Shown here: piece by piece, positions 8,090-19,248 of the stretch
Position numbering within the stretch: the stretch's first letter is position 1
How the letters are laid out: each line of letters starts with the position of its first letter
Source: Pseudarthrobacter psychrotolerans
GTDB taxonomy: Bacteria; Actinomycetota; Actinomycetes; Actinomycetales; Micrococcaceae
Reading direction: 5' to 3'
Length of the DNA stretch: 64,000 nt
Assembly (NCBI RefSeq): GCF_009911795.1
Contig: NZ_CP047898.1
Location: 248,001 to 312,000 of the forward strand
Notes under the pieces: model-generated
Database searches by the model: none
Told to the model about the DNA's origin: nothing
The model's input: the letters and a program-made list of their open reading frames with translations, nothing else
Made by a program: the position numbers and the translations under genes

Positions 8090-8782
8090 GTGACAACGAT
8101 GAATTCCGGTCGCCGCGGAGGCCTTCTGGCCTCCGCGGCGGTTGGAGTTCTGCTCCTTTTGCCTCTGGCCGGCTGTGGTACCGGAACGCCCGACGCCGGT
8201 TCCGCACCGTTGGCTCCCACCTCACCGTCGGCGTCGGCTGCTCCCGCCACCACTCCTGCTGCGGCGCCGGCCCCGCCTGCCGCGGCTCCTGCGGCGCCCG
8301 CCGTCGGGCCCGTTCCGGCGGTACTGCCCGCCTCCGTACCAGTAACACTTGAGATCCCCGCCATCGGCGTCCGGACCAACCTCCTGAGCCTGGGTCTTCG
8401 GGAGAACCGGTCGCTCGAAGTACCGAAGGATACCGGCAGCGGCGCCCCCGCCAGCTGGTACAACGGCTCACCCACCCCCGGCGAACGCGGCCCGGCAGTG
8501 ATGCTTGGCCACGTGAATGCACTTGGCGTCGCAACGGGCGTTTTCGCCAACCTGCGCCAGCTGACCCCAGGCACCGAGATCAACGTATCCCGAACCGACG
8601 GCAGCATCGCCGTGTTCACCGTTGACCGCGGAGCTACCTACAGCAAGAACGAGTTCCCCACACTGGAGGTCTACGGGAACACCGCGGGCTCCGAGCTGCG
8701 GCTCATCACCTGCGACGGCTACGACCCCGCCACCGGACTGTTTGACGACAACTACGTGATCTACGCCAAGCTCAAAGCCTGA
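8090..8782 (+). CDS. Class F sortase, lipoprotein-like N-terminus
   Basis: This 230-residue protein begins with a hydrophobic segment ending in PLAGC (about residues 23-27), a likely lipobox. An Ala/Pro-rich linker of about 55 residues follows, then a sortase fold. Catalytic residues fit the family: His141 in MLGHVNA and Cys208 in LITCDGYD, with a downstream Arg not clearly placed. Sortases cut and transpeptidate surface proteins carrying sorting motifs; class F members in actinobacteria are poorly characterised. The neighbouring CHRD protein is the obvious partner but lacks LPxTG. Start is GTG 8090; ATG 8099 is possible. Confidence 0.85.
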   Translation: MTTMNSGRRGGLLASAAVGVLLLLPLAGCGTGTPDAGSAPLAPTSPSASAAPATTPAAAPAPPAAAPAAPAVGPVPAVLPASVPVTLEIPAIGVRTNLLSLGLRENRSLEVPKDTGSGAPASWYNGSPTPGERGPAVMLGHVNALGVATGVFANLRQLTPGTEINVSRTDGSIAVFTVDRGATYSKNEFPTLEVYGNTAGSELRLITCDGYDPATGLFDDNYVIYAKLKA

Positions 8783-9689: not shown

Positions 9690-10661
9690 ATGGCCTACCT
9701 CTCGGAACCCTTCGCCCGCATCGGCATTATTGGCGGCACCGGCCTGTACCGGCTGGCCGGCGCCGCCGTGCTGGAGACGCTGGACGCCGCGACACCGTTC
9801 GGCCCGCCTTCCAGTCCCGTCACCATTGCCCGGCTGGCCGCACCGGACGGCACAGGCGGCTCGGACGGTCCGGTCGTCGCGTTCCTGAGCCGGCACGGCG
9901 TCGGGCACAGCATTCCCCCGCACCGGATCAACTATCGTGCCAACCTCTGGGCCCTCAAGAGCCTGGGCGTGGAGGTTGTCCTCTCCTGCGCGGCAGTGGG
10001 CGGACTGGTTCCCAGCCACGGGACCGGCACCTTTGCCGTGCCCGATCAGTTTCTGGACAGGACCTGGGGCCGGGCGGATACCTTCTACGATGGCTTGCTG
10101 TCCACCGGTGTGCAGCACCTGCCCGCTGCCGAGCCCTACAGCGCCCCGCTGCGAGCAGCACTCGTCGCCGCCCTGGAGTTGCAGGGCGAAGACTTCGCAC
10201 CGACAGCCACCATGGCAGTCATCAACGGGCCACGGTTTTCCACCAAGGCCGAGTCCGCGGCCCTGATCCAGGCCGGAGCGCATCTGGTCAGCATGACCCA
10301 ATACCCCGAGCCCGTGCTGGCGGCGGAGCTGAACATGCACTTCGCTGCGCTGGCATTCATCACGGACGCCGACACCGGCCACGACGGTTCCGAGCCCGTG
10401 ACCGCGGAGCTGGTACTCGGCCGCCTGGCGGCGGCGCAGCCGCGCCTGCTGGCCGTACTGTCCGCCGCGGTGCATAGGGTGTCCGCGGCGCTGGCCGGGA
10501 TGGAGCCGGCGCACGACGGCGGATTCCCGCTGCTGGCCCTCATACCCGCCGACGCCGTGGCTACTGTGATGGGCGGCGCCGTGATGGACCCCGCCGGCCC
10601 AGCCCGATCCGGCACGGTCCGACCCGGCACTGTCCACAACGCCGGACGGAGCGCCCAGTGA
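9690..10661 (+). CDS. S-methyl-5'-thioadenosine phosphorylase / purine nucleoside phosphorylase family
   Basis: This 323-residue enzyme of the MTAP/PNP class phosphorolyses a 5'-modified adenosine or purine nucleoside to base and (5-modified) ribose-1-phosphate. Visible motifs are IGIIGGTGLYRL at the start, SRHGVGHSIPPHRINYRANLWALK (phosphate site), NGPRFSTKAESA and MTQYPEPVLAAELNMHFAALAFITDADTGHD. It is about 50 residues longer than most MTAPs because of a C-terminal extension. A CATGAT element 6 nt before the ATG suggests a leaderless message. Its stop overlaps the GTG of an NAD-epimerase, tying it to the sugar-modifying genes that follow rather than to a methionine salvage operon. Confidence 0.88.
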   Translation: MAYLSEPFARIGIIGGTGLYRLAGAAVLETLDAATPFGPPSSPVTIARLAAPDGTGGSDGPVVAFLSRHGVGHSIPPHRINYRANLWALKSLGVEVVLSCAAVGGLVPSHGTGTFAVPDQFLDRTWGRADTFYDGLLSTGVQHLPAAEPYSAPLRAALVAALELQGEDFAPTATMAVINGPRFSTKAESAALIQAGAHLVSMTQYPEPVLAAELNMHFAALAFITDADTGHDGSEPVTAELVLGRLAAAQPRLLAVLSAAVHRVSAALAGMEPAHDGGFPLLALIPADAVATVMGGAVMDPAGPARSGTVRPGTVHNAGRSAQ

Positions 10662-11725
10662 GGATTCTGGTCACTGGCGGAGCCGGTTTCATCGGCGGGC
10701 ACATCGTCGATGCCGCCTTGGCCCGCGGCTGGGAGGTCCGGATCCTGGATTCGCTGAATCCGGCGGTGCATCCGGACCGGCCGCTACCAAATCCTGGCGC
10801 GCCCTTGCTGGTGGGCGACGTTGGCGATGCATCCACCGTCGCTGTGGCTTTGGAGGGGATCGACGTCGTGGTCCATCAGAGCGCCAAGGTGGGCCTCGGC
10901 GTCGACTTCTCCGATGCACCGGAGTACATCCGCAACAATGACCTGGCCACCGCCGTGCTCCTGGCAGGCATGGCCGCCGCCGGCACGGACAAGCTGGTGT
11001 TGGCCTCCTCCATGGTGGTCTACGGCGAGGGTGCCTACACAGACTCCGCCGGCCGGCCGGTGCGGCCCGGCCCGCGCCGGGTGGAGGATCTGGAACGCGG
11101 AATCTTTGATCCCCGGGATCCGGTGACCGGCGAGCTTCTGCTGCCGGTACTGGTCACCGAAGACGCGGCGCTTGACCCGGGGAACGTCTATGCTGCCTCC
11201 AAACTGGCCCAGGAAAACCTGGCGTCGGCGTGGGCCCGTTCAACCGGAGGCGCCGCTGCGGCCCTGCGGTACCACAACGTCTATGGCCCCTGGATGCCCA
11301 AAGACACCCCCTATGCGGGCGTAGCCAGCCTGTTCCGCTCGGCCCTGGCCCGTGGGGAGGCGCCGCGGGTGTTCGAGGACGGCGGCCAGCGCCGCAGCTT
11401 CATCCACGTGGCGGATGTGGCCGAGGCAAACCTGTGCGCTGTTGAGGCGTTGGCGGCAGGCGGGGTAGTGGCGCCGGGCAGTATGAGGGCATACAACGTG
11501 GGCGCCTCGGAGGTCCACACCATTGGTGCGATGGCCGGGGTGCTGAGCGCTGTTGGCGGCGGACCGGTCCCTGTGATCACGGGGGACTTCCGGTTGGGTG
11601 ACGTCCGGCACATCACCGCCAGTTCGGCACGGGCCAAGGCTGAACTGGGCTGGGCTCCGCGGCATGGGTTTGAGGACGGCATGCGCGAGTTCGCCACCGC
11701 TCCGCTGCGCGGGGACCGGACCTAG
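10658..11725 (+). CDS. NAD-dependent epimerase/dehydratase (extended SDR)
   Basis: This 355-residue cytoplasmic enzyme has an N-terminal Rossmann motif GGAGFIGGHIV (about residues 7-17), the ASSMVVYGEG catalytic region and the Tyr-Lys pair in YAASKLAQENL (about residue 178). Near the C-terminus RRSFIHVADVAEANL and YNVGAS are typical of nucleotide-sugar epimerases. It would epimerise, dehydrate or reduce an NDP-sugar; the substrate is not predictable. Translation starts at a GTG overlapping the phosphorylase stop, and it ends overlapping the stop of the convergent histidine kinase by 4 bp. Confidence 0.88.
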   Translation: MRILVTGGAGFIGGHIVDAALARGWEVRILDSLNPAVHPDRPLPNPGAPLLVGDVGDASTVAVALEGIDVVVHQSAKVGLGVDFSDAPEYIRNNDLATAVLLAGMAAAGTDKLVLASSMVVYGEGAYTDSAGRPVRPGPRRVEDLERGIFDPRDPVTGELLLPVLVTEDAALDPGNVYAASKLAQENLASAWARSTGGAAAALRYHNVYGPWMPKDTPYAGVASLFRSALARGEAPRVFEDGGQRRSFIHVADVAEANLCAVEALAAGGVVAPGSMRAYNVGASEVHTIGAMAGVLSAVGGGPVPVITGDFRLGDVRHITASSARAKAELGWAPRHGFEDGMREFATAPLRGDRT

Positions 11726-12861
11726 ATGCCCGTTCCCGGGCTCTGCTGCCCGGCTGGTATTCGTAACAGAAACCTGCACCCACCGTCAATGTTGGCGACT
11801 TCCAGGGCGCCACGGTGAGCCTGGATGATGCCGTTGACCATACTCAGGCCAACCCCTGCGCCGCTATAGCGCGATTTGGTGCGTCCGGTGTCTTTCTGCC
11901 AGCCCGCGGTGAGCATCCGGGGAAGGTCCTCCACCGGGATCCCGCCGCAGCCGTCGCGGACCTCCACCACCGCTTCGCCGGCTGTGGAGGTTACGGCAAC
12001 GGACACGGTGCTGCCATGGACGCTGTACAGAATGCCGTTGAGGATCACATTGCGGATGGCCCGGGACAATGATGCCCCATCGGCGACAACTATGGTGGGG
12101 GCGACGGCGTCGCCGTTGATGGCAATGGCCCGGCTGGCCGCGACAGGGGCGAGGTCGGCGATGACGTCACTGACGACGTCGTACAGGTCCAATTGCTGGT
12201 GATCCAGCACCAAGGTCCCGGCCTGGATCTTGGAGAGCTCGAGCAGGTCATTGACCAGTACGGCCATCTGGTCGGCCTGGCCAATGATTCTTTGGTGGTA
12301 GCCGGACACGTCCTCGGCTACGCCATCCTCCAGCGCCTCGGCCATGGCGCGCATGCTGGCCAGCGGGGTGCGCAGGTCGTGGGAGACCCAGGCAACGAGT
12401 TCGCGCCGCGCAGCCTCCACTGCCTGCTCCCGTTGTCTGGATTCTTCGAGTTTATGGCTGGTGGCAGCCAGTTCGGCGGCCAACGCGGACAGTTCCGAGG
12501 TCATTTTCCGTTGCGGTGCCACGGGCTCGCCGCGGCCGATTCTGGCCGCATCCCCGGCCAGGCGGTTGGTGTTCCTTGCCAGCCCTACTCCCAGGAGCAC
12601 TGCGACGACGGCGGCAACGACCGAGGCGATCGCCAAGATGAACCACATCACCTGCAGATCCGCTTCCGAGATGAACATGGCGTTGAAAGCGCTCACCATC
12701 CCGGCCACCAGGATGGCCACGGTGGCAAGGACCACCAGTAGGATCTGGACCACAATGGAGGTCCTTCGGAGCAGCCGCTGCAGCACCACTGTCAAAGCGC
12801 CGATGGCCAATGCCCATGACAGCACAACGGCGACAATGGTGAACAGATCGACGCTAGTCAT
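11722..12861 (-). CDS. Sensor histidine kinase (two-component system)
   Basis: This is a 379-residue membrane sensor. Two hydrophobic segments (about residues 5-60) are followed by a third near residues 70-100 and a HAMP-like stretch (RNTNRLAGDAARIGRGE). The HisKA domain contains phospho-acceptor His161 in VSHDLRTPL. The ATPase domain has the N box (RNVILNGILY), DGCGGIP and GAGVGLSMVNGI. The ATG at 12861 overlaps the end of the response regulator gene by 8 bp; an upstream in-frame start adds only nine Arg-rich residues. It lies inside the MTAP/glycosyltransferase neighbourhood and may control it. Confidence 0.92.
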   Translation of the reverse strand: MTSVDLFTIVAVVLSWALAIGALTVVLQRLLRRTSIVVQILLVVLATVAILVAGMVSAFNAMFISEADLQVMWFILAIASVVAAVVAVLLGVGLARNTNRLAGDAARIGRGEPVAPQRKMTSELSALAAELAATSHKLEESRQREQAVEAARRELVAWVSHDLRTPLASMRAMAEALEDGVAEDVSGYHQRIIGQADQMAVLVNDLLELSKIQAGTLVLDHQQLDLYDVVSDVIADLAPVAASRAIAINGDAVAPTIVVADGASLSRAIRNVILNGILYSVHGSTVSVAVTSTAGEAVVEVRDGCGGIPVEDLPRMLTAGWQKDTGRTKSRYSGAGVGLSMVNGIIQAHRGALEVANIDGGCRFLLRIPAGQQSPGTGI

Positions 12862-13594
12862 GGCTGCCCGGCTCCGTGCCGTCGTCAAACCGATAGCCCA
12901 CGCCCCACACCGTTTTCAACAGCACGGGTGTGGTGGGGTTGGCCTCGATTTTTTCGCGCAGCCGGCGGACGTGCACGGTGACAGTGGAGAGATCGCCGAA
13001 GTCCCAGCCCCAGACGGCCTTGATGAGGACGTCGCGGCTAAAGACCTGGTTGGGGCGGCGCAGAAAGAACGCCAGGAGATCGAATTCCCTTGCCGTCAGG
13101 GTGAGGTTCTCAGTGCGGTACCTGACGATGCGCGAGGCCGGGTTGAGGACAAAGCCGGCCAGCTCCACGGGCGGCTCAGGGGTGAATTCCTTGATGCTGC
13201 GGCGAAGCACGGACTTTACCCGCAGCACCAGCTCACGGGGTGAGAAGGGCTTGGTGACGTAGTCGTCGGCACCCATTTCCAGGCCTAGGATGCGGTCGTC
13301 CTCGGTGCCAAGCGCGGTGAGCATGATGATGGGCATGGACTGGGTGAGTCGGATCCTCCGGCACACCTCCACCCCGTCCAGGCCGGGAAGCATGCGGTCC
13401 AGGATGATCAGGTCCGGGTTGTGCGTCCGGGCCAGGTGCAGGGCGCTGAATCCATCGCCTGCCATATCCACCTGGAAACCGGCCAGCACCAGATAGTCGT
13501 GCACCACCTGGGCGATGGTGGCCTCGTCTTCAACGAGCAGGATGCGCCGGTTGCCAACATCCGCGGCGTCAGCGTCGGGCTGGACAGTATTCAC
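12854..13594 (-). CDS. OmpR-family response regulator
   Basis: This 246-residue protein has a receiver domain (residues about 18-130) with the acidic pair in LLVEDEA, phospho-acceptor Asp66 in LIILDRMLPG, and Lys in DDYVTKPFSP. A winged-helix DNA-binding domain follows (LTAREFDLLAFFLRRPNQVFSRDVLI, STVTVHVRRLREKIE, VWGVGYRF). The GTG at 13594 is chosen because TATGCT lies exactly 6 nt upstream (13606-13601), as in other leaderless genes here; longer frames add Arg-rich non-protein-like residues. It is divergent from the GT2 glycosyltransferase, so it may regulate both directions. Confidence 0.93.
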   Translation of the reverse strand: MNTVQPDADAADVGNRRILLVEDEATIAQVVHDYLVLAGFQVDMAGDGFSALHLARTHNPDLIILDRMLPGLDGVEVCRRIRLTQSMPIIMLTALGTEDDRILGLEMGADDYVTKPFSPRELVLRVKSVLRRSIKEFTPEPPVELAGFVLNPASRIVRYRTENLTLTAREFDLLAFFLRRPNQVFSRDVLIKAVWGWDFGDLSTVTVHVRRLREKIEANPTTPVLLKTVWGVGYRFDDGTEPGSHD

Positions 13595-13716
13595 GTTCCC
13601 AGCATAGATTCGTGCGCGCCGCTGTGGGTTTGTTCGGGCTTGCCGGAGCGCAAGCGTCCCGGTTCCGTAAGAATTGCCGCCTGCCGCGCCGGGCCCTCGG
13701 ATTCTACGGTAGAAGA
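13595..13716. promoter_or_regulatory. Divergent leaderless promoters (response regulator / GT2)
   Basis: Leftward, TATGCT at 13606-13601 is 6 nt before the regulator GTG. Rightward, TACGGT at 13705-13710 is 6 nt before the glycosyltransferase ATG. Both fit a -10 element followed directly by a start codon at the transcription start. The 122-bp gap between two oppositely transcribed genes is the natural place for an operator of the two-component system, but I saw no clear direct repeat. Confidence 0.6.
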
Positions 13717-14547
13717 ATGGAGAAAGAGCAGAGCACCTCGCACGATGGAACCGGTGCGGCCAGCGGCCTCGGCACATCGGACGACGCCGGTGGTGCACCC
13801 GCCGTGGTGGTGGATGTTGTGCTGCCCTGCCTTAATGAGCGTTCGGCCCTTCCCCGAGTGCTGGGGGCCCTGCTGCCCGGATACCGCGCCATAGTGGTGG
13901 ACAACGGGTCCACCGATGGTTCCGGCACGCTGGCCGCCAGTCTGGGGGCCGCCGTCGTTCATGAACCGAGGCGCGGCTTTGGCGCGGCAGCCCACGCGGG
14001 ACTGGTGGCTGCCACGGCGGAGTTTGTGGCCTTCTGCGATTGCGATGGTTCGCTGGACCCTGCTCAGCTCGCCCCGATGCTGGAGCTGGTTCGCGCCGGG
14101 AGGGCCGATCTGGTCCTGGGTGCCCGGCGGCCGGCCCACGGCTCCTGGCCGATCCATGCCCGGCTGGCCAACATCGTCCTGAGCCGGCGGCTGCGCCGGT
14201 TGACGGGAATCCCCGTCACTGACCTGGGACCGCTTCGCCTGGCCCGGCGCACCGCGTTGCTGGGACTCGACCTCACCGACCGGCGCAGCGGCTATCCGCT
14301 GGAAATGTTCCTCAAAGCCCACCACGACGGCTGGCGCGTGGCCGAGATCCCGGTCGCCTATGCGCCGCGCCTGGGCAAGTCCAAGGTGACAGGCACGGCG
14401 CGTGGAACCCTGACAGCGCTCAAGGACATGAGTGCACAGCTGGACGCCGCCTCGCGGTGGGTGCCAGGGACGGGCGCCGGCGGACGGGCTAGGGACAGAA
14501 CACCGGCCGACGGACCCCCAGCCGCGCCCCGGGGAGCGACGCCATGA
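13717..14547 (+). CDS. Family 2 glycosyltransferase
   Basis: This 276-residue GT-A enzyme of the dolichyl/polyprenyl-phosphate sugar synthase type lacks membrane segments. Visible motifs are VDVVLPCLNERSALPRVL (residues about 31-48), VDNGSTDGSG, GFGAAAHAGL and the metal-binding acidic motif CDCDGSLDP. SGYPLEMFLKAHHDGWRVAEIPV follows later. The C-terminus is a Gly/Arg/Pro-rich tail. The start is supported by a -10 box 6 nt upstream. It heads a three-gene operon with DUF2064 and a methyltransferase, each overlapping the next by four bases. It probably transfers an activated sugar to a lipid phosphate or small acceptor. Confidence 0.9.
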   Translation: MEKEQSTSHDGTGAASGLGTSDDAGGAPAVVVDVVLPCLNERSALPRVLGALLPGYRAIVVDNGSTDGSGTLAASLGAAVVHEPRRGFGAAAHAGLVAATAEFVAFCDCDGSLDPAQLAPMLELVRAGRADLVLGARRPAHGSWPIHARLANIVLSRRLRRLTGIPVTDLGPLRLARRTALLGLDLTDRRSGYPLEMFLKAHHDGWRVAEIPVAYAPRLGKSKVTGTARGTLTALKDMSAQLDAASRWVPGTGAGGRARDRTPADGPPAAPRGATP

Positions 14548-15245
14548 ACCTCACCATCGCCGTCATCGCCAAAGAGTGCATCCCAGGCAAAGCCAAGACG
14601 CGCCTCACGCCACCGCTCACGCCTGCGCAGGCGGCAGCCTTGGCCCAGGTCAGCCTCAGTCAGACGCTGGAGACGGTGCGGTTCTTCCCCGCGGCCAGGC
14701 GGTTGCTGGTGTTTGACGGGACGCCGCACCACAGGGAGGCTGCGGGTTTTGAAGTGGTTGCCCAGAGCGCCGGCAGGCTCGACGAACGGCTGGCGGCCAT
14801 CTGTTCCCTGGTCACCGGCCCGCTGCTGATTCTGGGCATGGACACCCCCCAGCTTTCCTCTGCACTACTCACCGGGCTGGTGGCGGACTGGTCCGCCCGG
14901 ACGCCCTCCCAGGACGCCTGGATCGGTCTGGCCTCGGATGGCGGCTTCTGGGCCCTGGGCCTGCACCGACCCGACGGCGGCCTGGTCCGGGGCGTGGAAA
15001 TGTCCACCCCGCGGACCGGTGCGCACCAGTTGGCCCGGCTGGCCGGCGCCGGCCTGGCCGTGGGGTTGCTGCCCACTCTGACGGACGTGGATCACTTCGC
15101 CGATGCCCTGGCTGCCGCCCGGGATTGCCACGGCACTCCGTTTGCCCGCGAGGTTGACCGTCTGGCCCTGGGGCTGCCGGCGGCGGCGGGGGCGCCGGTT
15201 TCGGTGCCGGCCGACGCACCCATCGGAGGGGCGGCCCGGTCATGA
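14544..15245 (+). CDS. DUF2064 / TIGR04282 family glycosyltransferase-like protein
   Basis: This 233-residue protein has a nucleotidyltransferase/GT-A-like fold. Near the start IAVIAKECIPGKAKTRLTPPLTPAQAAAL matches the KxxxPGxxKTRL signature of this family. The central LLILGMDTPQLSSALL holds the acidic GxDxP motif, and a later WIGLASDGGFWALGL matches the family's DGGYxxxG site. Members called arsenosugar biosynthesis glycosyltransferases occur beside GT2 enzymes. The ATG overlaps the GT2 stop and its own stop overlaps the methyltransferase ATG, so the three proteins are made together. The exact reaction, nucleotide-sugar formation or transfer, is not known from sequence. Confidence 0.85.
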   Translation: MNLTIAVIAKECIPGKAKTRLTPPLTPAQAAALAQVSLSQTLETVRFFPAARRLLVFDGTPHHREAAGFEVVAQSAGRLDERLAAICSLVTGPLLILGMDTPQLSSALLTGLVADWSARTPSQDAWIGLASDGGFWALGLHRPDGGLVRGVEMSTPRTGAHQLARLAGAGLAVGLLPTLTDVDHFADALAAARDCHGTPFAREVDRLALGLPAAAGAPVSVPADAPIGGAARS

Positions 15246-15979
15246 ACACACCGGGAGCCGCCACCGATACCGGGACCTGGACAGGCAGCGCACCTTCAGG
15301 CGGCACCATCCCGGTTTCCTTCTTTGGCCAAGGAGGACACGAGCCCTACGCTGGCAGCCTGTCCGTCGGCCTGGGGCTCCTGACCCTCCGCCCGGAGTCG
15401 GACGGGCCGGAATCCGCCGGGCCGGTCCATTTCAGCATGCTCGGCTGGTCCGCCCCGGCCACCGCCTGCGAACGGGAGCTGCTGCGAACACTCCGCGGGC
15501 CGGTTCTCGATGTGGGCTGCGGCCCAGGCCGGATGCTGGCCGCTGCACGGGAACTGGGCTTGATGGCCATGGGCGTTGACACGAGCGCCCCCGCGGTTCT
15601 GCTGGCCACCAGCCTCGGGGCCGCCGCGATCCATGGCTCCGTCTTTGACCAGGTCCCGCACGAGGGAGCTTGGGGTTCGGCCCTGCTGCTCGACGGCAAC
15701 ATCGGCATCGGCGGGAACATACGGGTGCTGCTGGAGCGTATTGCCTCACTGCTGGCCCCGGGCGGGCAGGCGCTGGCAGAGGCCGAAACCTCCGATTCAC
15801 TCGACGTGGCCTACCTGGCCGTGCTGGAGGATTCGGCCGGACGGGCCAGCGCTGCCTTTCCCTGGGCCCGTGCCGGTGCGAAAGCGCTAGCCGCGCATGC
15901 GGCCCGGGCGGGGTTGGCCTCCGTCGCCACCCGGACTGTTCAGGGCCGGGTCTTCCTGACGCTGGAACGTCGGGCGTAA
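15242..15979 (+). CDS. Class I SAM-dependent methyltransferase
   Basis: This 245-residue cytoplasmic enzyme has motif I in VLDVGCGPGRMLAAARELG (about residues 90-108), an acidic residue ending strand 2 in AMGVDTSAPAV, and LLLDGNIGIGGN as the substrate-side loop. A final strand pair (ATRTVQGRVFLTLERR) is typical of the fold. It methylates an unknown acceptor using S-adenosylmethionine. It is the third gene of the GT2-DUF2064 operon. Its last 40 bases overlap, on the opposite strand, the end of the next membrane protein gene. Confidence 0.87.
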   Translation: MNTPGAATDTGTWTGSAPSGGTIPVSFFGQGGHEPYAGSLSVGLGLLTLRPESDGPESAGPVHFSMLGWSAPATACERELLRTLRGPVLDVGCGPGRMLAAARELGLMAMGVDTSAPAVLLATSLGAAAIHGSVFDQVPHEGAWGSALLLDGNIGIGGNIRVLLERIASLLAPGGQALAEAETSDSLDVAYLAVLEDSAGRASAAFPWARAGAKALAAHAARAGLASVATRTVQGRVFLTLERRA

Positions 15980-16452
15980 CGTCCGACGCCGGCAATGGCC
16001 ACCGCGGCGGCTACCGCCAAAACCAGCCAGAAGACGCCCAAGGCCTGCACATAGTCCCCCCGCAGGACGGTGACGTTGGCACCGCTTTCCGGACCGCTTG
16101 GCTGAAGCACCTGCTGGGCGCGAATCAGCGGGGCAGCCAGCAAGGTCACCATCGCCCCTATCAGCAGGGCCCCGCGCACTATCCCCTGCTGCACGGGGCG
16201 CAGCCGATACGTCAGCCGCGACAAACCGCCGCCGGCCAACGTTGTCATGGGGACCAGTACGCCGTCGTGCACCACCAACGCTGCGGCAAGCCAGGCCGCC
16301 ACGCCAATCAACTGGGCAAGCGGCACATTGGCAAGGAATCCGAAAAAGGCATAGCCGAGTGCGGCCACGCCCAGGGCACCCAGGGCTGTCCGCACCCACC
16401 AGAACGTTCCGCGCTCCACCGTTTCCGGTGGACGCATCAATGGCAGTCGCAT
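15940..16452 (-). CDS. Small membrane protein paired with molybdopterin oxidoreductase
   Basis: This 170-residue protein has four probable membrane segments (about residues 15-35, 45-62, 88-110 and 130-152) and a basic C-terminus. I chose the ATG at 16452 because a strong ribosome binding site, GGAGGTGAT, precedes it within the end of the upstream oxidoreductase gene, whose TGA shares a base with this ATG. It is therefore coupled to that gene and may be an additional membrane subunit of the same redox complex. I see no haem or metal motif and do not recognise the family. Confidence 0.75.
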   Translation of the reverse strand: MRLPLMRPPETVERGTFWWVRTALGALGVAALGYAFFGFLANVPLAQLIGVAAWLAAALVVHDGVLVPMTTLAGGGLSRLTYRLRPVQQGIVRGALLIGAMVTLLAAPLIRAQQVLQPSGPESGANVTVLRGDYVQALGVFWLVLAVAAAVAIAGVGRYARRSSVRKTRP

Positions 16453-17669
16453 CAGATCACCTCCACTTTGTGCACCCATTTGGTCTGCAGTACCCCCGGG
16501 CGGCCGGGGGCGATGATGCGTGCCGGATAACCGTGGTCAAGGTCCAGCGGCGCGCCGTTGAGCTCCAGCGCCAGCAATGTCTTCTCGTCCTGGCTATACG
16601 CGGCGGGCATGAAGGAGCGCCCATAGACGCCGCCCTGCTCCAGACTGGAAATTTGCAGTACTGCGTCCACCGGCGCCCCCACCATGGCCATCAGGTCCCG
16701 GATCCGGACACCGCGCCATTGGGCGCCCTGGCTCCAACCCTCCACGCAGGCGATGGGCAGCCCGTAGCTGTACTGCGGCAGGGCGCTCAGCTGGGCCAGC
16801 GTAAACGTCTTCTGCACCGAGCCCGAGGACACGGCCAGCACCCAGTCGGGGGCCAGCGCAGCGGCCGCGACGCCCGCCTGGGCCGCGGTCCGGTTTATCG
16901 GTACCTCCTGCGGACCCGTATCCATCCGGCGGGGCGCGAAGAAATTCAGGCCCGCCAGCCACGTGAACGACTGGCCCGCCGTCGTCAGAACGACGACGGC
17001 GGTGCTGGCGGTGATTGCCGCCAGGAACCCCCTGCGGCTCCAGCCGGGTCCGGTGGCAGGTGCCGCGGCAGCCGGAACCGATTCGCCGGCCGGCGCTGCC
17101 CCAGCAGTATCCGCAGCGAGGGCGGTCGCATCCGATCGGCGGCTCCAGTGCGCACGGACCAGCGGCAGCTTGACCGCAATGTGCAACGCCAGCGACCCGA
17201 TGATCACCCAGCCCAGCCAATAGTGGACGTCTTTGAAGGAGAACGGCCAGGGGTACCACTGGAAGGTGTTTAGCAATCCGATGGTGACTTCCACTAGCGA
17301 GGCGGACACGAAGAGGGCAATCGAGGCCCTCTCCAGGCCGTGCACCACGGATTTCAGCGGCGGCCAACGCAGCAGTTCGGGGAACACAGACCAAAGCTTG
17401 GCGGCCAGCAGCGGGATGGAAGCTATCCCGGTGGTGACGTGGATGCCCTGTGTGGCTGCATATAGCCAGACCGGACGGGTAAGGAAAAGCATCCAGCCGG
17501 GCGGATCCTGTAGGAGATGGCTGAAGAGCCCGGTCACGAAGCAGACGATGAACGCCATGCCGAGCCAGCGGCCCAGCACCACCGTCAGCCGTTTGCTCCG
17601 CAAGGGGGACGAAAACCGTCCGTTCACCGAATCCATCCGCTGCTGGAGGTGGGTGGTCAATCTGTCCAT
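16452..17669 (-). CDS. Molybdopterin-dependent (sulfite oxidase-like) oxidoreductase fused to a cytochrome-b-like membrane domain
   Basis: This 405-residue protein has two parts. Residues about 20-190 hold four to five membrane helices with histidines suited to haem binding (ATQGIHVTTG, KDVHYWLGW, ALHIAVK), like a cytochrome b561-type anchor. After a linker and a further segment with twin-Arg-like SRRGFLAA comes a sulfite oxidase molybdopterin domain with a candidate Mo-ligating Cys308 in IACVEGWS and a GYPARIIAPGRPG strand. It would carry electrons between an exported Mo site and membrane haem. The ATG at 17669 has TTTGAT 6 nt upstream; a longer start at 17753 is possible but less likely. 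Confidence 0.83.
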   Translation of the reverse strand: MDRLTTHLQQRMDSVNGRFSSPLRSKRLTVVLGRWLGMAFIVCFVTGLFSHLLQDPPGWMLFLTRPVWLYAATQGIHVTTGIASIPLLAAKLWSVFPELLRWPPLKSVVHGLERASIALFVSASLVEVTIGLLNTFQWYPWPFSFKDVHYWLGWVIIGSLALHIAVKLPLVRAHWSRRSDATALAADTAGAAPAGESVPAAAAPATGPGWSRRGFLAAITASTAVVVLTTAGQSFTWLAGLNFFAPRRMDTGPQEVPINRTAAQAGVAAAALAPDWVLAVSSGSVQKTFTLAQLSALPQYSYGLPIACVEGWSQGAQWRGVRIRDLMAMVGAPVDAVLQISSLEQGGVYGRSFMPAAYSQDEKTLLALELNGAPLDLDHGYPARIIAPGRPGVLQTKWVHKVEVI

Positions 17670-17781
17670 ACCCTGATCAAACCACCGCGCCCCGCGCCCC
17701 GTCCTGCGCCAGACCTTACGAAAGGCGAACAGTCCGTTGCTTCCCTGGTCCACCGGCGTGCATGTGGTGCAGGATCAAGGG

Positions 17782-19248
17782 GTGAGCGAACCAATACCCC
17801 GCCGTGCACATGGCAGCCAGGCGCCCGGGCAGGCGGGTGACAGCCCGGCGTCAAGCGGTCCCGGGGGTGCCGGCGCCACAGCGGCGGCACTGACGCTGGT
17901 GGCATTGCTGGCGGGTGCCGTCTGGTGGACCGTCACCACCGATCCGTCAGCGGAGTGGGTGTCACCCCTTGGCACGCTGGCGGCCTGGGTACTTTTTCTC
18001 CCGGCCGCCCTGATGGCACGCCGGATCCCCGCCCGGCATGCGGCCGCCGTCGTGCTGCTGGGCTCCGTGCTGTTGGGTACCGCGGCGATTTCTGCCCCGC
18101 CCGCCACGAGCAATGACTCCGCCCGCTATGCGTGGGACGGCATCGTCCAGAAGGTGGGAATTTCCCCCTACGCCCATGTTCCGGCGGACGAGGCGCTGCG
18201 CCCACTGCGGCCGGAATGGCTGTTCCAGGATGCCGGACCGGACGGAACCTGCCATACCAACCCCTTTCCCACCGGCACGGAGACCACCACCAACATTCCC
18301 GGCGGCGGCACCCTGTGCACGGCCATCAACCGGCCCTCCGTGCCCACCGTCTATCCGGCCGTGGCGGAGCTCTATTTCCTCGCCGTCCGGCTCATCCCCG
18401 GTGCCGAGACGGGGTTCATCGCCTTCCAGCTGGGCGGGCTGCTGCTGAGCTTGGCCGTGACGGTGATGCTGCTGGTATTCCTTCGCCGCACCGGCCGTCC
18501 GGCACACCAGGCAGTGTGGTGGGGGTGGTCACCGCTGGTGGCCTTTGAAGCCATCAACGGCGCCCACGTGGACGCACTCGGCGCGGCACTGGCGCTGGCC
18601 GCCGCGCTGCTGTTGGTGAGTCGGCGCACGCTGGGTTCCGGGATCGCTTTCGGGGCGGCGGTGGCCACCAAGCTTATTCCAGCCATCAGCGCACCGGCGC
18701 TGCTCTACCGCCGCCCGGTCCGTTTTATGGCCGCGGCGGTAGCCACCTTTGCCGTGGCGTATGTACCGTATGTCCTCGCCAGCGGCTGGGCAGTGCTGGG
18801 CTATCTGCCCACCTACCTTAAATCAGAGGGTTACGACGGAGCGGACAGCCCGCGCTTCACGCTGCTGAAGATGGTCCTCCCGGCGGACTGGGCGGCGCCG
18901 GCGGCACTGCTGCTTCTGTTGGGTCTGGCCGTGTATGTCTGGCGGACCACCGACGCCGCCCGGCCCTGGGACGGGCAGGTTTTTATGATCGGAGGGACGC
19001 TGTTGCTCGTCTCGCCCAGCTACCCCTGGTACGCCCTGCTGCTCCTGCCATTCGTGGTGCTGAGCCGGCGCTACGAGTTCACCGCCATCGCCCCTGTGCT
19101 GACAATGATGTACTTCACCGGCGCCGAACCACATGGCCAGCTGGGGGCCAGGCTGGGCCTGGCCGCCGCCGCCGCCCTTATCGCCGTGGCCACAGTGATG
19201 AGGCAACGGCGTTCCCCGGGTTCAGGGAGGACCTTCACGCCCTTGTGA
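17782..19248 (+). CDS. GT-C family membrane glycosyltransferase (GT87/DUF2029-like mannosyltransferase)
   Basis: This 488-residue protein has about 11 membrane segments and extracytoplasmic loops, as in polyprenyl-phosphate-mannose-dependent transferases. An acidic loop motif early on (SNDSARYAWDGIVQ) matches the catalytic aspartate region of GT-C enzymes. The region LVAFEAINGAHVDALGAALALAA and the late SPSYPWYALLLLPF are typical of the family. The GTG start has CAGGAT 6 nt upstream. It is divergent from the oxidoreductase and ends the cluster. It probably adds a sugar outside the membrane to a lipid- or protein-linked glycan. Confidence 0.82.
   Translation: MSEPIPRRAHGSQAPGQAGDSPASSGPGGAGATAAALTLVALLAGAVWWTVTTDPSAEWVSPLGTLAAWVLFLPAALMARRIPARHAAAVVLLGSVLLGTAAISAPPATSNDSARYAWDGIVQKVGISPYAHVPADEALRPLRPEWLFQDAGPDGTCHTNPFPTGTETTTNIPGGGTLCTAINRPSVPTVYPAVAELYFLAVRLIPGAETGFIAFQLGGLLLSLAVTVMLLVFLRRTGRPAHQAVWWGWSPLVAFEAINGAHVDALGAALALAAALLLVSRRTLGSGIAFGAAVATKLIPAISAPALLYRRPVRFMAAAVATFAVAYVPYVLASGWAVLGYLPTYLKSEGYDGADSPRFTLLKMVLPADWAAPAALLLLLGLAVYVWRTTDAARPWDGQVFMIGGTLLLVSPSYPWYALLLLPFVVLSRRYEFTAIAPVLTMMYFTGAEPHGQLGARLGLAAAAALIAVATVMRQRRSPGSGRTFTPL

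What the first reader, a model, noticed from the sequence alone, without database searches (positions are those of the whole stretch)
9690..19248. Uncharacterised MTAP-epimerase-GT2-DUF2064-methyltransferase-molybdoenzyme-GT87 neighbourhood with its own two-component system
Seen: ten genes in 9.6 kb with four-base overlaps and shared promoter gaps, including an MTAP-type phosphorylase overlapping an NAD-epimerase, a GT2-DUF2064-methyltransferase operon, a molybdopterin enzyme and a membrane mannosyltransferase. Known: in arsenosugar biosynthesis a nucleoside phosphorylase, TIGR04282-type and GT2 proteins act on a 5'-deoxyadenosyl adduct. Inference: the phosphorylase here releases a 5-modified ribose-1-phosphate that is activated, epimerised or methylated and attached to a lipid or glycan. 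No radical-SAM ArsS or ArsM was seen, so arsenic itself is not implied.
Basis: partly seen in the sequence, partly recalled or inferred. Interest (0 to 1): 0.7.

Follow-up and report, generated by a model that had tools for sequence, protein, structure and literature searches.

The report
Thio-sugar glycan-decorating gene cluster
A soil-type actinobacterium carries a relative of the gene set that tubercle bacilli use to cap a surface glycan with a rare sulphur sugar, here with a different final transferase and an exported sulphur-redox-type enzyme, which suggests that this sugar may not be confined to the tuberculosis glycan.

Summary
The ten genes are there as described. In four genomes that look like slow-growing mycobacteria, MTAP, epimerase, GT2 and DUF2064 homologues lie beside a GT-C in the order I recall for M. 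tuberculosis Rv0535-Rv0541c (MtxS = Rv0539, MtxT = Rv0541c in print).

Co-occurrence is strong. Of 149 genomes of the order, 16 have a close DUF2064 relative; the same 16, and none of the other 133, have the molybdoenzyme with its membrane domain. MTAP occurs in 15 of 16 against 12 of 133. The window genome shows no MtnA, so classical methionine salvage is unlikely, and no Emb arabinosyltransferase.

Two things look new. The terminal transferase is swapped: of 71 core loci, 40 carry an MtxT-type GT-C, 30 a GT87-type (as here), none both, one neither. And the molybdoenzyme resembles a fused MsrPQ; MTX sulfoxide is known from LAM, so it may act on MTX or its sulfoxide.

Best reading: MTA to MTR-1-P to NDP-sugar to NDP-MTX to polyprenyl-P-MTX to an unknown non-arabinan glycan. 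All chemistry, the acceptor, the methyltransferase's role and the redox direction are inferred. New variant of a known kind.

The parts
9690..10661 (+). MTAP-like 5'-deoxy-5'-methylthioadenosine phosphorylase; proposed MTA + Pi to MTR-1-phosphate
   Evidence: PNP_UDP_1 1.5e-31; NCBIfam MTAP models 236-249 bits, under their cut-offs; the best solved matches are MTA phosphorylases, the two shown having TDYD where the window has TDAD at 225-228; D226 and D228 invariant in 18 of 18 aligned cluster MTAPs
10658..11725 (+). Extended-SDR NAD epimerase; proposed C3 inversion ribo to xylo
   Evidence: Pfam Epimerase 8.6e-43; Yxx[ST]K in 71 of 71 and GxxGxIG in 70 of 71 cluster epimerases; 52% identity to the one in L100
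11722..12888 (-). Sensor histidine kinase with N-terminal hydrophobic segments
   Evidence: HisKA, HATPase_c; four hydrophobic segments; a kinase of this profile in 45 of 71 core loci
12854..13552 (-). OmpR/PhoB-type response regulator (start uncertain)
   Evidence: Response_reg + Trans_reg_C; in 46 of 71 core loci
13717..14547 (+). GT2, relative of MtxS; proposed polyprenyl-phosphate-MTX synthase (start uncertain)
   Evidence: Glycos_transf_2; 54% identity to the GT2 in L100; own-genome paralogues 29-36% apart from a second copy at 71%; cluster GT2s are one side of a starred branch against 7 paralogues; best solved matches dolichol-P-mannose synthase and ArnC
14544..15245 (+). DUF2064 nucleotidyltransferase-like protein; proposed MTR-1-P nucleotidylyltransferase
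   Evidence: PF09837 4.7e-16; CofC model TIGR03552 1.6e-6, below cut-off; closest solved 3cgx, then CofC/FbiD-type chains weakly; confident AF2 model, pLDDT 93
15242..15979 (+). Class I SAM methyltransferase, role unknown
   Evidence: Methyltransf_23 1.2e-7; in 60 of 71 core loci, absent from the four slow-grower-like mycobacterial loci
15940..16479 (-). Small four-segment membrane protein beside the molybdoenzyme
   Evidence: no Pfam/NCBIfam match; four hydrophobic segments
16452..17753 (-). Membrane-fused molybdoenzyme of Sco3746 architecture; proposed MTX/MTX-sulfoxide oxidoreductase (a start at about 17669 is also possible)
   Evidence: Oxidored_molyb 5.5e-23; H105, H177, H191 and C336 invariant in 21 aligned; CVEGWS loop like CVEAWS of 1xdq; SRRGFL Tat-like motif at 239 before a hydrophobic segment
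17737..19248 (+). GT87-type polytopic GT-C, the terminal transferase here in place of MtxT (start uncertain)
   Evidence: PF09594 1.7e-11; eight hydrophobic segments; no detectable similarity to the MtxT-type GT-C

Best explanation
The cluster is a non-mycobacterial variant of the methylthioxylose (MTX) pathway. Proposed steps: the phosphorylase turns 5'-methylthioadenosine into 5-methylthioribose-1-phosphate; the DUF2064 protein activates it to an NDP-sugar; the epimerase inverts C3 (ribo to xylo); the GT2 moves the sugar to polyprenyl phosphate; after flipping, the GT87-type GT-C places it on an extracytoplasmic glycan that is not an Emb-type arabinan. The heme-molybdenum enzyme, exported by Tat, acts on the methylthio/methylsulfinyl group of the finished residue, as MsrPQ does on methionine sulfoxide in proteins. 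The two-component system is its likely regulator. Shown here: homology of the core to the mycobacterial locus, co-occurrence, no MtnA match, no Emb match, swapped GT-C, MsrP-like cysteine loop. Inferred: all chemistry, step order, glycan acceptor, export route, redox direction, regulation, methyltransferase role.
For: Eight genomes taken to be Mycobacterium (PPE and Emb content; names not given) carry MTAP, epimerase, GT2, DUF2064 and a GT-C together (8 of 8); L100 also has FabH-type, UbiA, AMP-ligase, PHO4 and enoyl-CoA hydratase family flanks, the order I recall for Rv0533c-Rv0548c. MtxS = Rv0539 and MtxT = Rv0541c, and MTA as the start, are in print. Order sample of 149: DUF2064 16, molybdoenzyme with membrane domain the same 16 (Fisher 8e-22), MTAP 15 of 16 vs 12 of 133 (2e-12), MtnA 7 in all and not in the window genome. 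GT2-DUF2064 and DUF2064-methyltransferase fused ORFs. Cluster GT2s, mycobacterial ones included, are one group against paralogues (96*). MTX and its sulfoxide MSX occur in LAM. The four mycobacterial genomes without a linked molybdoenzyme have an unlinked one.
Against: The GT-C is not MtxT, so the last step and acceptor are not covered by the homology. MTAP is within the fetched stretch in only 39 of 71 core loci and on another contig or megabases away in f21 (Streptomyces-like by size) genomes; 12 of 133 non-cluster genomes have MTAP, 9 of them without MtnA, so MTAP without MtnA is not peculiar to the cluster. 2 of 16 cluster genomes have MtnA. Fisher values ignore shared ancestry. The molybdoenzyme's profile matches sulfite oxidases better than MsrP and is below all four NCBIfam cut-offs listed; the window's copy and the mycobacterial unlinked ones lie in different main subclades; the Sco3746 family also occurs in other phyla. 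The extra methyltransferase has no place in known MTX chemistry.
Confidence: 0.67

Rival explanations
1. The cluster makes another 5-modified or plain pentofuranose donor (for example 5-deoxy-pentose from 5'-deoxyadenosine, or an O-methylated sugar), with the same enzymes but a different sugar.
For: MTAP not found in the fetched stretch in 32 of 71 core loci (some stretches end early, e.g. in G116 it lies about 11 kb away); a methyltransferase in 60 of 71 that is absent from the slow-grower-like mycobacterial loci; MTAPs also accept 5'-deoxyadenosine (recall).
Against: GT2, epimerase and DUF2064 are alignable with the mycobacterial ones at 36-54% identity and the GT2s form one group; MTAP is in 15 of 16 cluster genomes of the order and in 34 of 37 genomes with a DUF2064 match that were asked.
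Confidence: 0.22
2. Ordinary neighbours: MTAP for methionine salvage beside an unrelated polyprenyl-phosphate-hexose glycosylation operon and a sulfite dehydrogenase.
For: All families have housekeeping members; NCBIfam's sub-threshold matches include galE and sulfite dehydrogenases.
Against: No MtnA match in the window genome; co-occurrence in the order sample; recurrence in rearranged orders.
Confidence: 0.07
3. The molybdoenzyme is a general periplasmic methionine-sulfoxide reductase or sulfite dehydrogenase that is merely co-regulated with an MTX-type pathway. (This concerns one part only and can be true together with the best explanation's core.)
For: Architecture as described for Sco3746, with MsrPQ as distant relatives; sulfite oxidases are the top solved matches.
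Against: The form with membrane domain is in exactly the 16 cluster genomes and none of 133 others, while plain molybdopterin-domain matches are common (97 of 149 genomes have some match); an unlinked copy is present where the cluster lacks one in mycobacteria.
Confidence: 0.45

Closest known systems
Methylthioxylose (MTX) capping locus of mycobacterial LAM (MtxS Rv0539, MtxT Rv0541c)
   Same: MTAP, epimerase, GT2, DUF2064 and one GT-C; window to L100: MTAP 41%, epimerase 52%, GT2 54%, DUF2064 36% identity
   Different: GT87-type GT-C instead of MtxT; methyltransferase, molybdoenzyme and two-component system inside the cluster (as in the four rapid-grower-like mycobacterial loci); no Emb match
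Sco3746 family / MsrPQ (PMC5449189)
   Same: membrane domain with conserved His, RR motif before a hydrophobic segment, Moco domain; CVEGWS loop
   Different: below NCBIfam MsrP cut-off; one polypeptide, unlike MsrP/MsrQ, though two overlapping ORFs in G031, G038, G120; not aligned with Sco3746 itself, for which the passages seen give no substrate
Arsenosugar biosynthesis proteins TIGR04282/TIGR04283
   Different: both below curated cut-offs (99 vs 134; 36 vs 182), no ArsS or ArsM match among the ten proteins
Three-component pentofuranose systems (PMC11127046)
   Same: polyprenyl-P pentofuranose donor, GT-C, optional epimerase
   Different: start from PRPP with a UbiA-type synthase; that paper names MTX as a different route and says it is unclear whether it exists outside LAM

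Membership tests
Mycobacterial MTX pathway | MTA phosphorylase with adenine-type residues | tested here: inconclusive
   best solved matches are MTA phosphorylases, TD-x-D shared (meaning of the two Asp recalled); but under all NCBIfam MTAP cut-offs
Mycobacterial MTX pathway | MtxS-type GT2 paired with DUF2064 and epimerase | tested here: met
   the mycobacterial loci stand for Rv0535-Rv0541c by recalled gene order, no M. tuberculosis sequence was compared
Mycobacterial MTX pathway | MtxT-type GT-C | tested here: not met
   GT87 instead; no significant blastp match, hhalign probability 0.6%
Mycobacterial MTX pathway | LAM-type arabinan machinery in the genome (Emb, PF04602) | tested here: not met
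   0 matches in G000; found in the control Corynebacterium glutamicum and in all 9 f22 genomes asked; other LAM genes not searched
Mycobacterial MTX pathway | MTX found in the glycan | not testable with these tools
   needs glycan analysis
MsrPQ / Sco3746 family | Moco cysteine in a C-V-E-x-W-S loop | tested here: met
   CVEGWS aligned with CVEAWS of 1xdq (E 0.068; that 1xdq is E. coli MsrP/YedY, and that sulfite oxidases have another loop, is recalled); CVEGW in 61 of 65 rows
MsrPQ / Sco3746 family | NCBIfam MsrP cut-off | tested here: not met
   21.5 vs 207 bits
MsrPQ / Sco3746 family | five TMDs with RR before TMD5 | tested here: inconclusive
   SRRGFL at 239 before a hydrophobic segment at 242; a simple hydropathy scan found four segments, not five
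Arsenosugar biosynthesis | TIGR04282 / TIGR04283 cut-offs and ArsS | tested here: not met
   below cut-offs; no radical SAM match among the ten proteins
Methionine salvage | MTR-1-P isomerase MtnA (TIGR00512) in the genome | tested here: not met
   no match in G000; 7 of 149 in the order have one

The most novel reading that the evidence does not exclude
MTX-type thio-sugars are a widespread extracytoplasmic glycan decoration of Actinomycetota, made by a conserved donor core with interchangeable, unrelated terminal GT-C transferases, and kept in a chosen redox state by a dedicated Tat-exported heme-molybdenum methyl-sulfoxide oxidoreductase (the Sco3746 family); the M. tuberculosis pathway is a reduced branch of it.
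Probability: 0.4. Interest if true: 0.78.

Novelty: new variant of a known kind. Interest (0 to 1): 0.6.

Why it matters
A 2023 review calls MTX a unique residue of ManLAM of the M. tuberculosis complex (passages), and an assay on an MTX-LAM epitope is listed (title); a 2024 paper says it is unclear whether the reaction exists outside LAM. This cluster makes that testable in environmental bacteria, proposes a substrate for the Sco3746 family and a role for DUF2064 (sugar-1-phosphate nucleotidylyltransferase), and gives candidate enzymes for the MTX/MSX redox pair seen in LAM.

Tried and rejected
Arsenosugar reading: both diagnostic models below cut-off, no ArsS/ArsM match in the cluster. Methionine salvage: no MtnA match in the window genome, although 2 of 16 cluster genomes have one. 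Common origin of GT87 and MtxT-type GT-C by profile comparison: no support; a shared GT-C fold is not excluded. The GT2 tree is set aside: three of its eight outgroup rows (loci L145, L148, L154, matches on the minus strand) had been translated on the wrong strand, as a check showed. With the strands put right and L147 left out (a stop inside the match), 78 cluster GT2s are one side of a starred branch against 7 paralogues (quick method, long branches warned of). On that GT2 tree the GT-C type changes 8 times; on the concatenated tree (quick method, SH-aLRT only) 5 times. Fold comparison of the DUF2064 model and a model of the molybdoenzyme could not be done (tools switched off). Literature: 10 searches used; in their listings I saw no MTX work in bacteria other than mycobacteria, but they list at most 40 papers each, and the 10 papers listed hold neither MTX term. 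The key paper (Angala 2017) is not held and was seen only in reference lists and citing passages. Any statement that this is unpublished rests on these searches only.
Full report
Observation. The small membrane protein at 15940-16479 has no family. The MTAP scores 236 bits against a cut-off of 275 and the DUF2064 protein 99 against 134, so neither reaches its curated model.

Recurrence. In 149 genomes of the order, the window's DUF2064 protein found 18 genomes at E<=1e-3. I left out two weak ones (G059 3.7e-4, G092 8.9e-4), leaving 16. A profile of the molybdoenzyme matched 97 of 149 at E<=1e-10, but the strong matches over membrane domain and Moco domain (E<1e-70) are in exactly those 16 genomes; in G031, G038 and G120 the two halves are separate overlapping ORFs, in 13 one match spans both. 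All other matches are weaker than 1e-25. MTAP-profile matches number 127 of 149, of which I count 27 as MTAP (E<1e-60; the rest, E>1e-21, I take for purine nucleoside phosphorylases): 15 of 16 cluster genomes (not G087) and 12 of 133 others. Fisher values are 8e-22 and 2e-12; they ignore kinship, the thresholds were set after seeing the gap in scores, and profiles A3 and A4 were built partly from the same loci. None of the other 10 genomes of the window's family in that sample has a DUF2064 match. Yet the named scan (26 loci, DNA patterns from this one protein) returned 25 relatives in Micrococcaceae, Microbacteriaceae and Brevibacteriaceae (families as given), nearly all with most of the cluster (L061 is partial; L066, Tepidimonas, is not a relative). 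The cluster is patchy.

Loci. I fetched 15 order loci, 26 named loci, and 40 further stretches from 39 of the 110 phylum genomes with a match (110 of 396), chosen mostly by score; the choice favours strong matches. Of these 81, 71 are at least 13 kb long and hold GT2 and DUF2064 above threshold (dropped: L037, L058, L061, L066, L105, L112, L123, L126, L129, L136). Of 71: epimerase 68, methyltransferase 60, molybdoenzyme 59, MTAP 39, kinase 45, regulator 46. The HMMs were trained on 26 of the order and named loci, so the mycobacterial, class and phylum loci are the independent part: of 34 there, epimerase 32, methyltransferase 24, molybdoenzyme 23, MTAP 10.

Mycobacterial link. Family f22 genus g66 I take to be Mycobacterium by PPE (2 to 79 matches; g67 has 8 too), Emb and gene order. 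Four of its eight genomes have 36-79 PPE matches (slow-grower-like, recalled), four have 2-6. All eight carry MTAP, epimerase, GT2, DUF2064 and a GT-C of about nine segments; the four with few PPE also have kinase, regulator, methyltransferase and molybdoenzyme in the locus. In L100, one of the former, a DUF7937 protein lies between, and the flanks are FabH-type, UbiA, AMP-ligase, PHO4 and enoyl-CoA hydratase families. That this is the M. tuberculosis order Rv0533c-Rv0548c is recalled; no M. tuberculosis sequence was compared. Window to L100 identities: MTAP 41%, epimerase 52%, GT2 54%, DUF2064 36%. Cluster GT2s, these included, are one side of a starred branch against 7 paralogues. MtxS = Rv0539 and MtxT = Rv0541c are in a figure legend of PMC8780516 (passages). 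PMC11127046 (passages) states that MTX starts from 5'-methylthioadenosine, uses a decaprenyl-P donor and a GT-C, and that it is unclear whether the reaction exists outside lipoarabinomannan. The primary paper is not held.

Salvage and arabinan. MtnA matches are in 7 of 149 genomes and not in the window's; of 16 cluster genomes G033 and G093 have one. MTAP without MtnA is also seen in 9 non-cluster genomes, so this alone does not prove the link. Emb-type PF04602 was sought in 42 genomes: it is in all 9 f22 genomes and in G087, not in the other 32, the window genome included (15 of the 16 order cluster genomes were asked). Mannan or lipomannan genes were not searched. MTAP was found in 34 of 37 genomes with a DUF2064 match that were asked, in f21 far from the cluster.

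Swapped last step. The window GT87 and the mycobacterial GT-C show no significant similarity by blastp or profile comparison (probability 0.6%). Of 71 core loci 40 have the MtxT type, 30 the GT87 type, none both, one (L125) neither (the two GT-C profiles were built from these same loci). On a concatenated GT2+DUF2064+epimerase tree (window and 70 loci) the type changes at least 5 times by parsimony, 3 changes of the GT87 label being forced by starred branches; on the GT2 tree 8 times. Both types occur in family f21. This suggests a shared donor given to different acceptors (inference).

Molybdoenzyme. The 433-residue protein has conserved His in its membrane part, a Tat-like SRRGFL before a hydrophobic segment, and a Moco domain, the architecture described for Sco3746, whose distant relatives are MsrP and MsrQ (PMC5449189, passages); my hydropathy scan found four segments, not five. 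Its cysteine loop CVEGWS aligns with CVEAWS in 1xdq (a weak match, E 0.068, though the best in that search); by whole profile, sulfite oxidases rank first. The four slow-grower-like genomes have unlinked copies. Of six unlinked mycobacterial sequences put in a tree (five from these four genomes, one from G499), five fall in a starred subclade with linked copies L097, L098 and L104, and L166 lies just outside; but the window's copy, and the linked copy of G499, belong to the other main subclade. LAM of four M. tuberculosis strains contains both MTX and its sulfoxide MSX (PMC8531672, passages), and PMC10503756 cites, for anti-oxidative properties of MTX, a paper titled as describing a natural carbohydrate substrate of MsrA (passages and reference list). 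Hence the proposal that the enzyme acts on the CH3-S(O)-CH2 group of the sugar; direction unknown. Rv0218, a transmembrane molybdopterin protein called a possible sulfite oxidase (passages), is a likely counterpart by recall only.

Other steps. DUF2064: closest solved chain 3cgx, a putative nucleotide-diphospho-sugar transferase, with weak matches to CofC-type enzymes; good AF2 model but no fold search. GT2: best solved matches are dolichol-P-mannose synthase and ArnC. The stereochemistry is consistent (recall and inference): phosphorolysis gives an alpha-1-phosphate, an inverting GT2 a beta-lipid phosphate, an inverting GT-C the alpha-linkage known for MTX. The methyltransferase is unexplained: it is absent from the four slow-grower-like loci, so it may add a further methyl group.

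Verdict. A new variant of a known kind: homologous to the mycobacterial MTX core, not a member in its last step. The chemistry is not shown. On re-checking I lowered the best explanation from 0.68 to 0.67 and raised the other-sugar rival from 0.20 to 0.22 and the general-reductase rival from 0.40 to 0.45, because MTAP without MtnA also occurs outside the cluster and because the window's molybdoenzyme is not in the same subclade as the unlinked mycobacterial ones.

Noticed in passing
L024:8591-10014 (G000:C1:3087590-3089013): A second GT2+DUF2064 pair in the same genome lies beside an Rv1678-Rv1681-like cassette (acyl-CoA dehydrogenase, SBP-like, radical SAM NF049973 515 bits, DoxD-like, Rv1678-like membrane protein) and an ISL3-type transposase ORF; no other window-cluster gene was found in that stretch.
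   Followed up: partly
L050, L059, L060; L031, L037: GT2 and DUF2064 lie in one ORF of 461-473 aa in the first three; DUF2064 and methyltransferase in one ORF in the last two.
   Followed up: no
L111 and L112 (G315): A genome of f21 (Streptomyces-like by size) has a cluster and a second locus with only DUF2064 and methyltransferase found.
   Followed up: no
L100:13051-14718 and 10945-12762: In this mycobacterial locus a DUF7937 membrane protein and a 606-aa protein without Pfam match sit between epimerase and GT2.
   Followed up: no
window 8090-8782: A sortase-domain protein is encoded just upstream of the cluster.
   Followed up: no
G087 (L028): The one non-f22 genome of those asked with an Emb-type match (4.1e-64) is also the only one of the 16 order cluster genomes without MTAP.
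   Followed up: no
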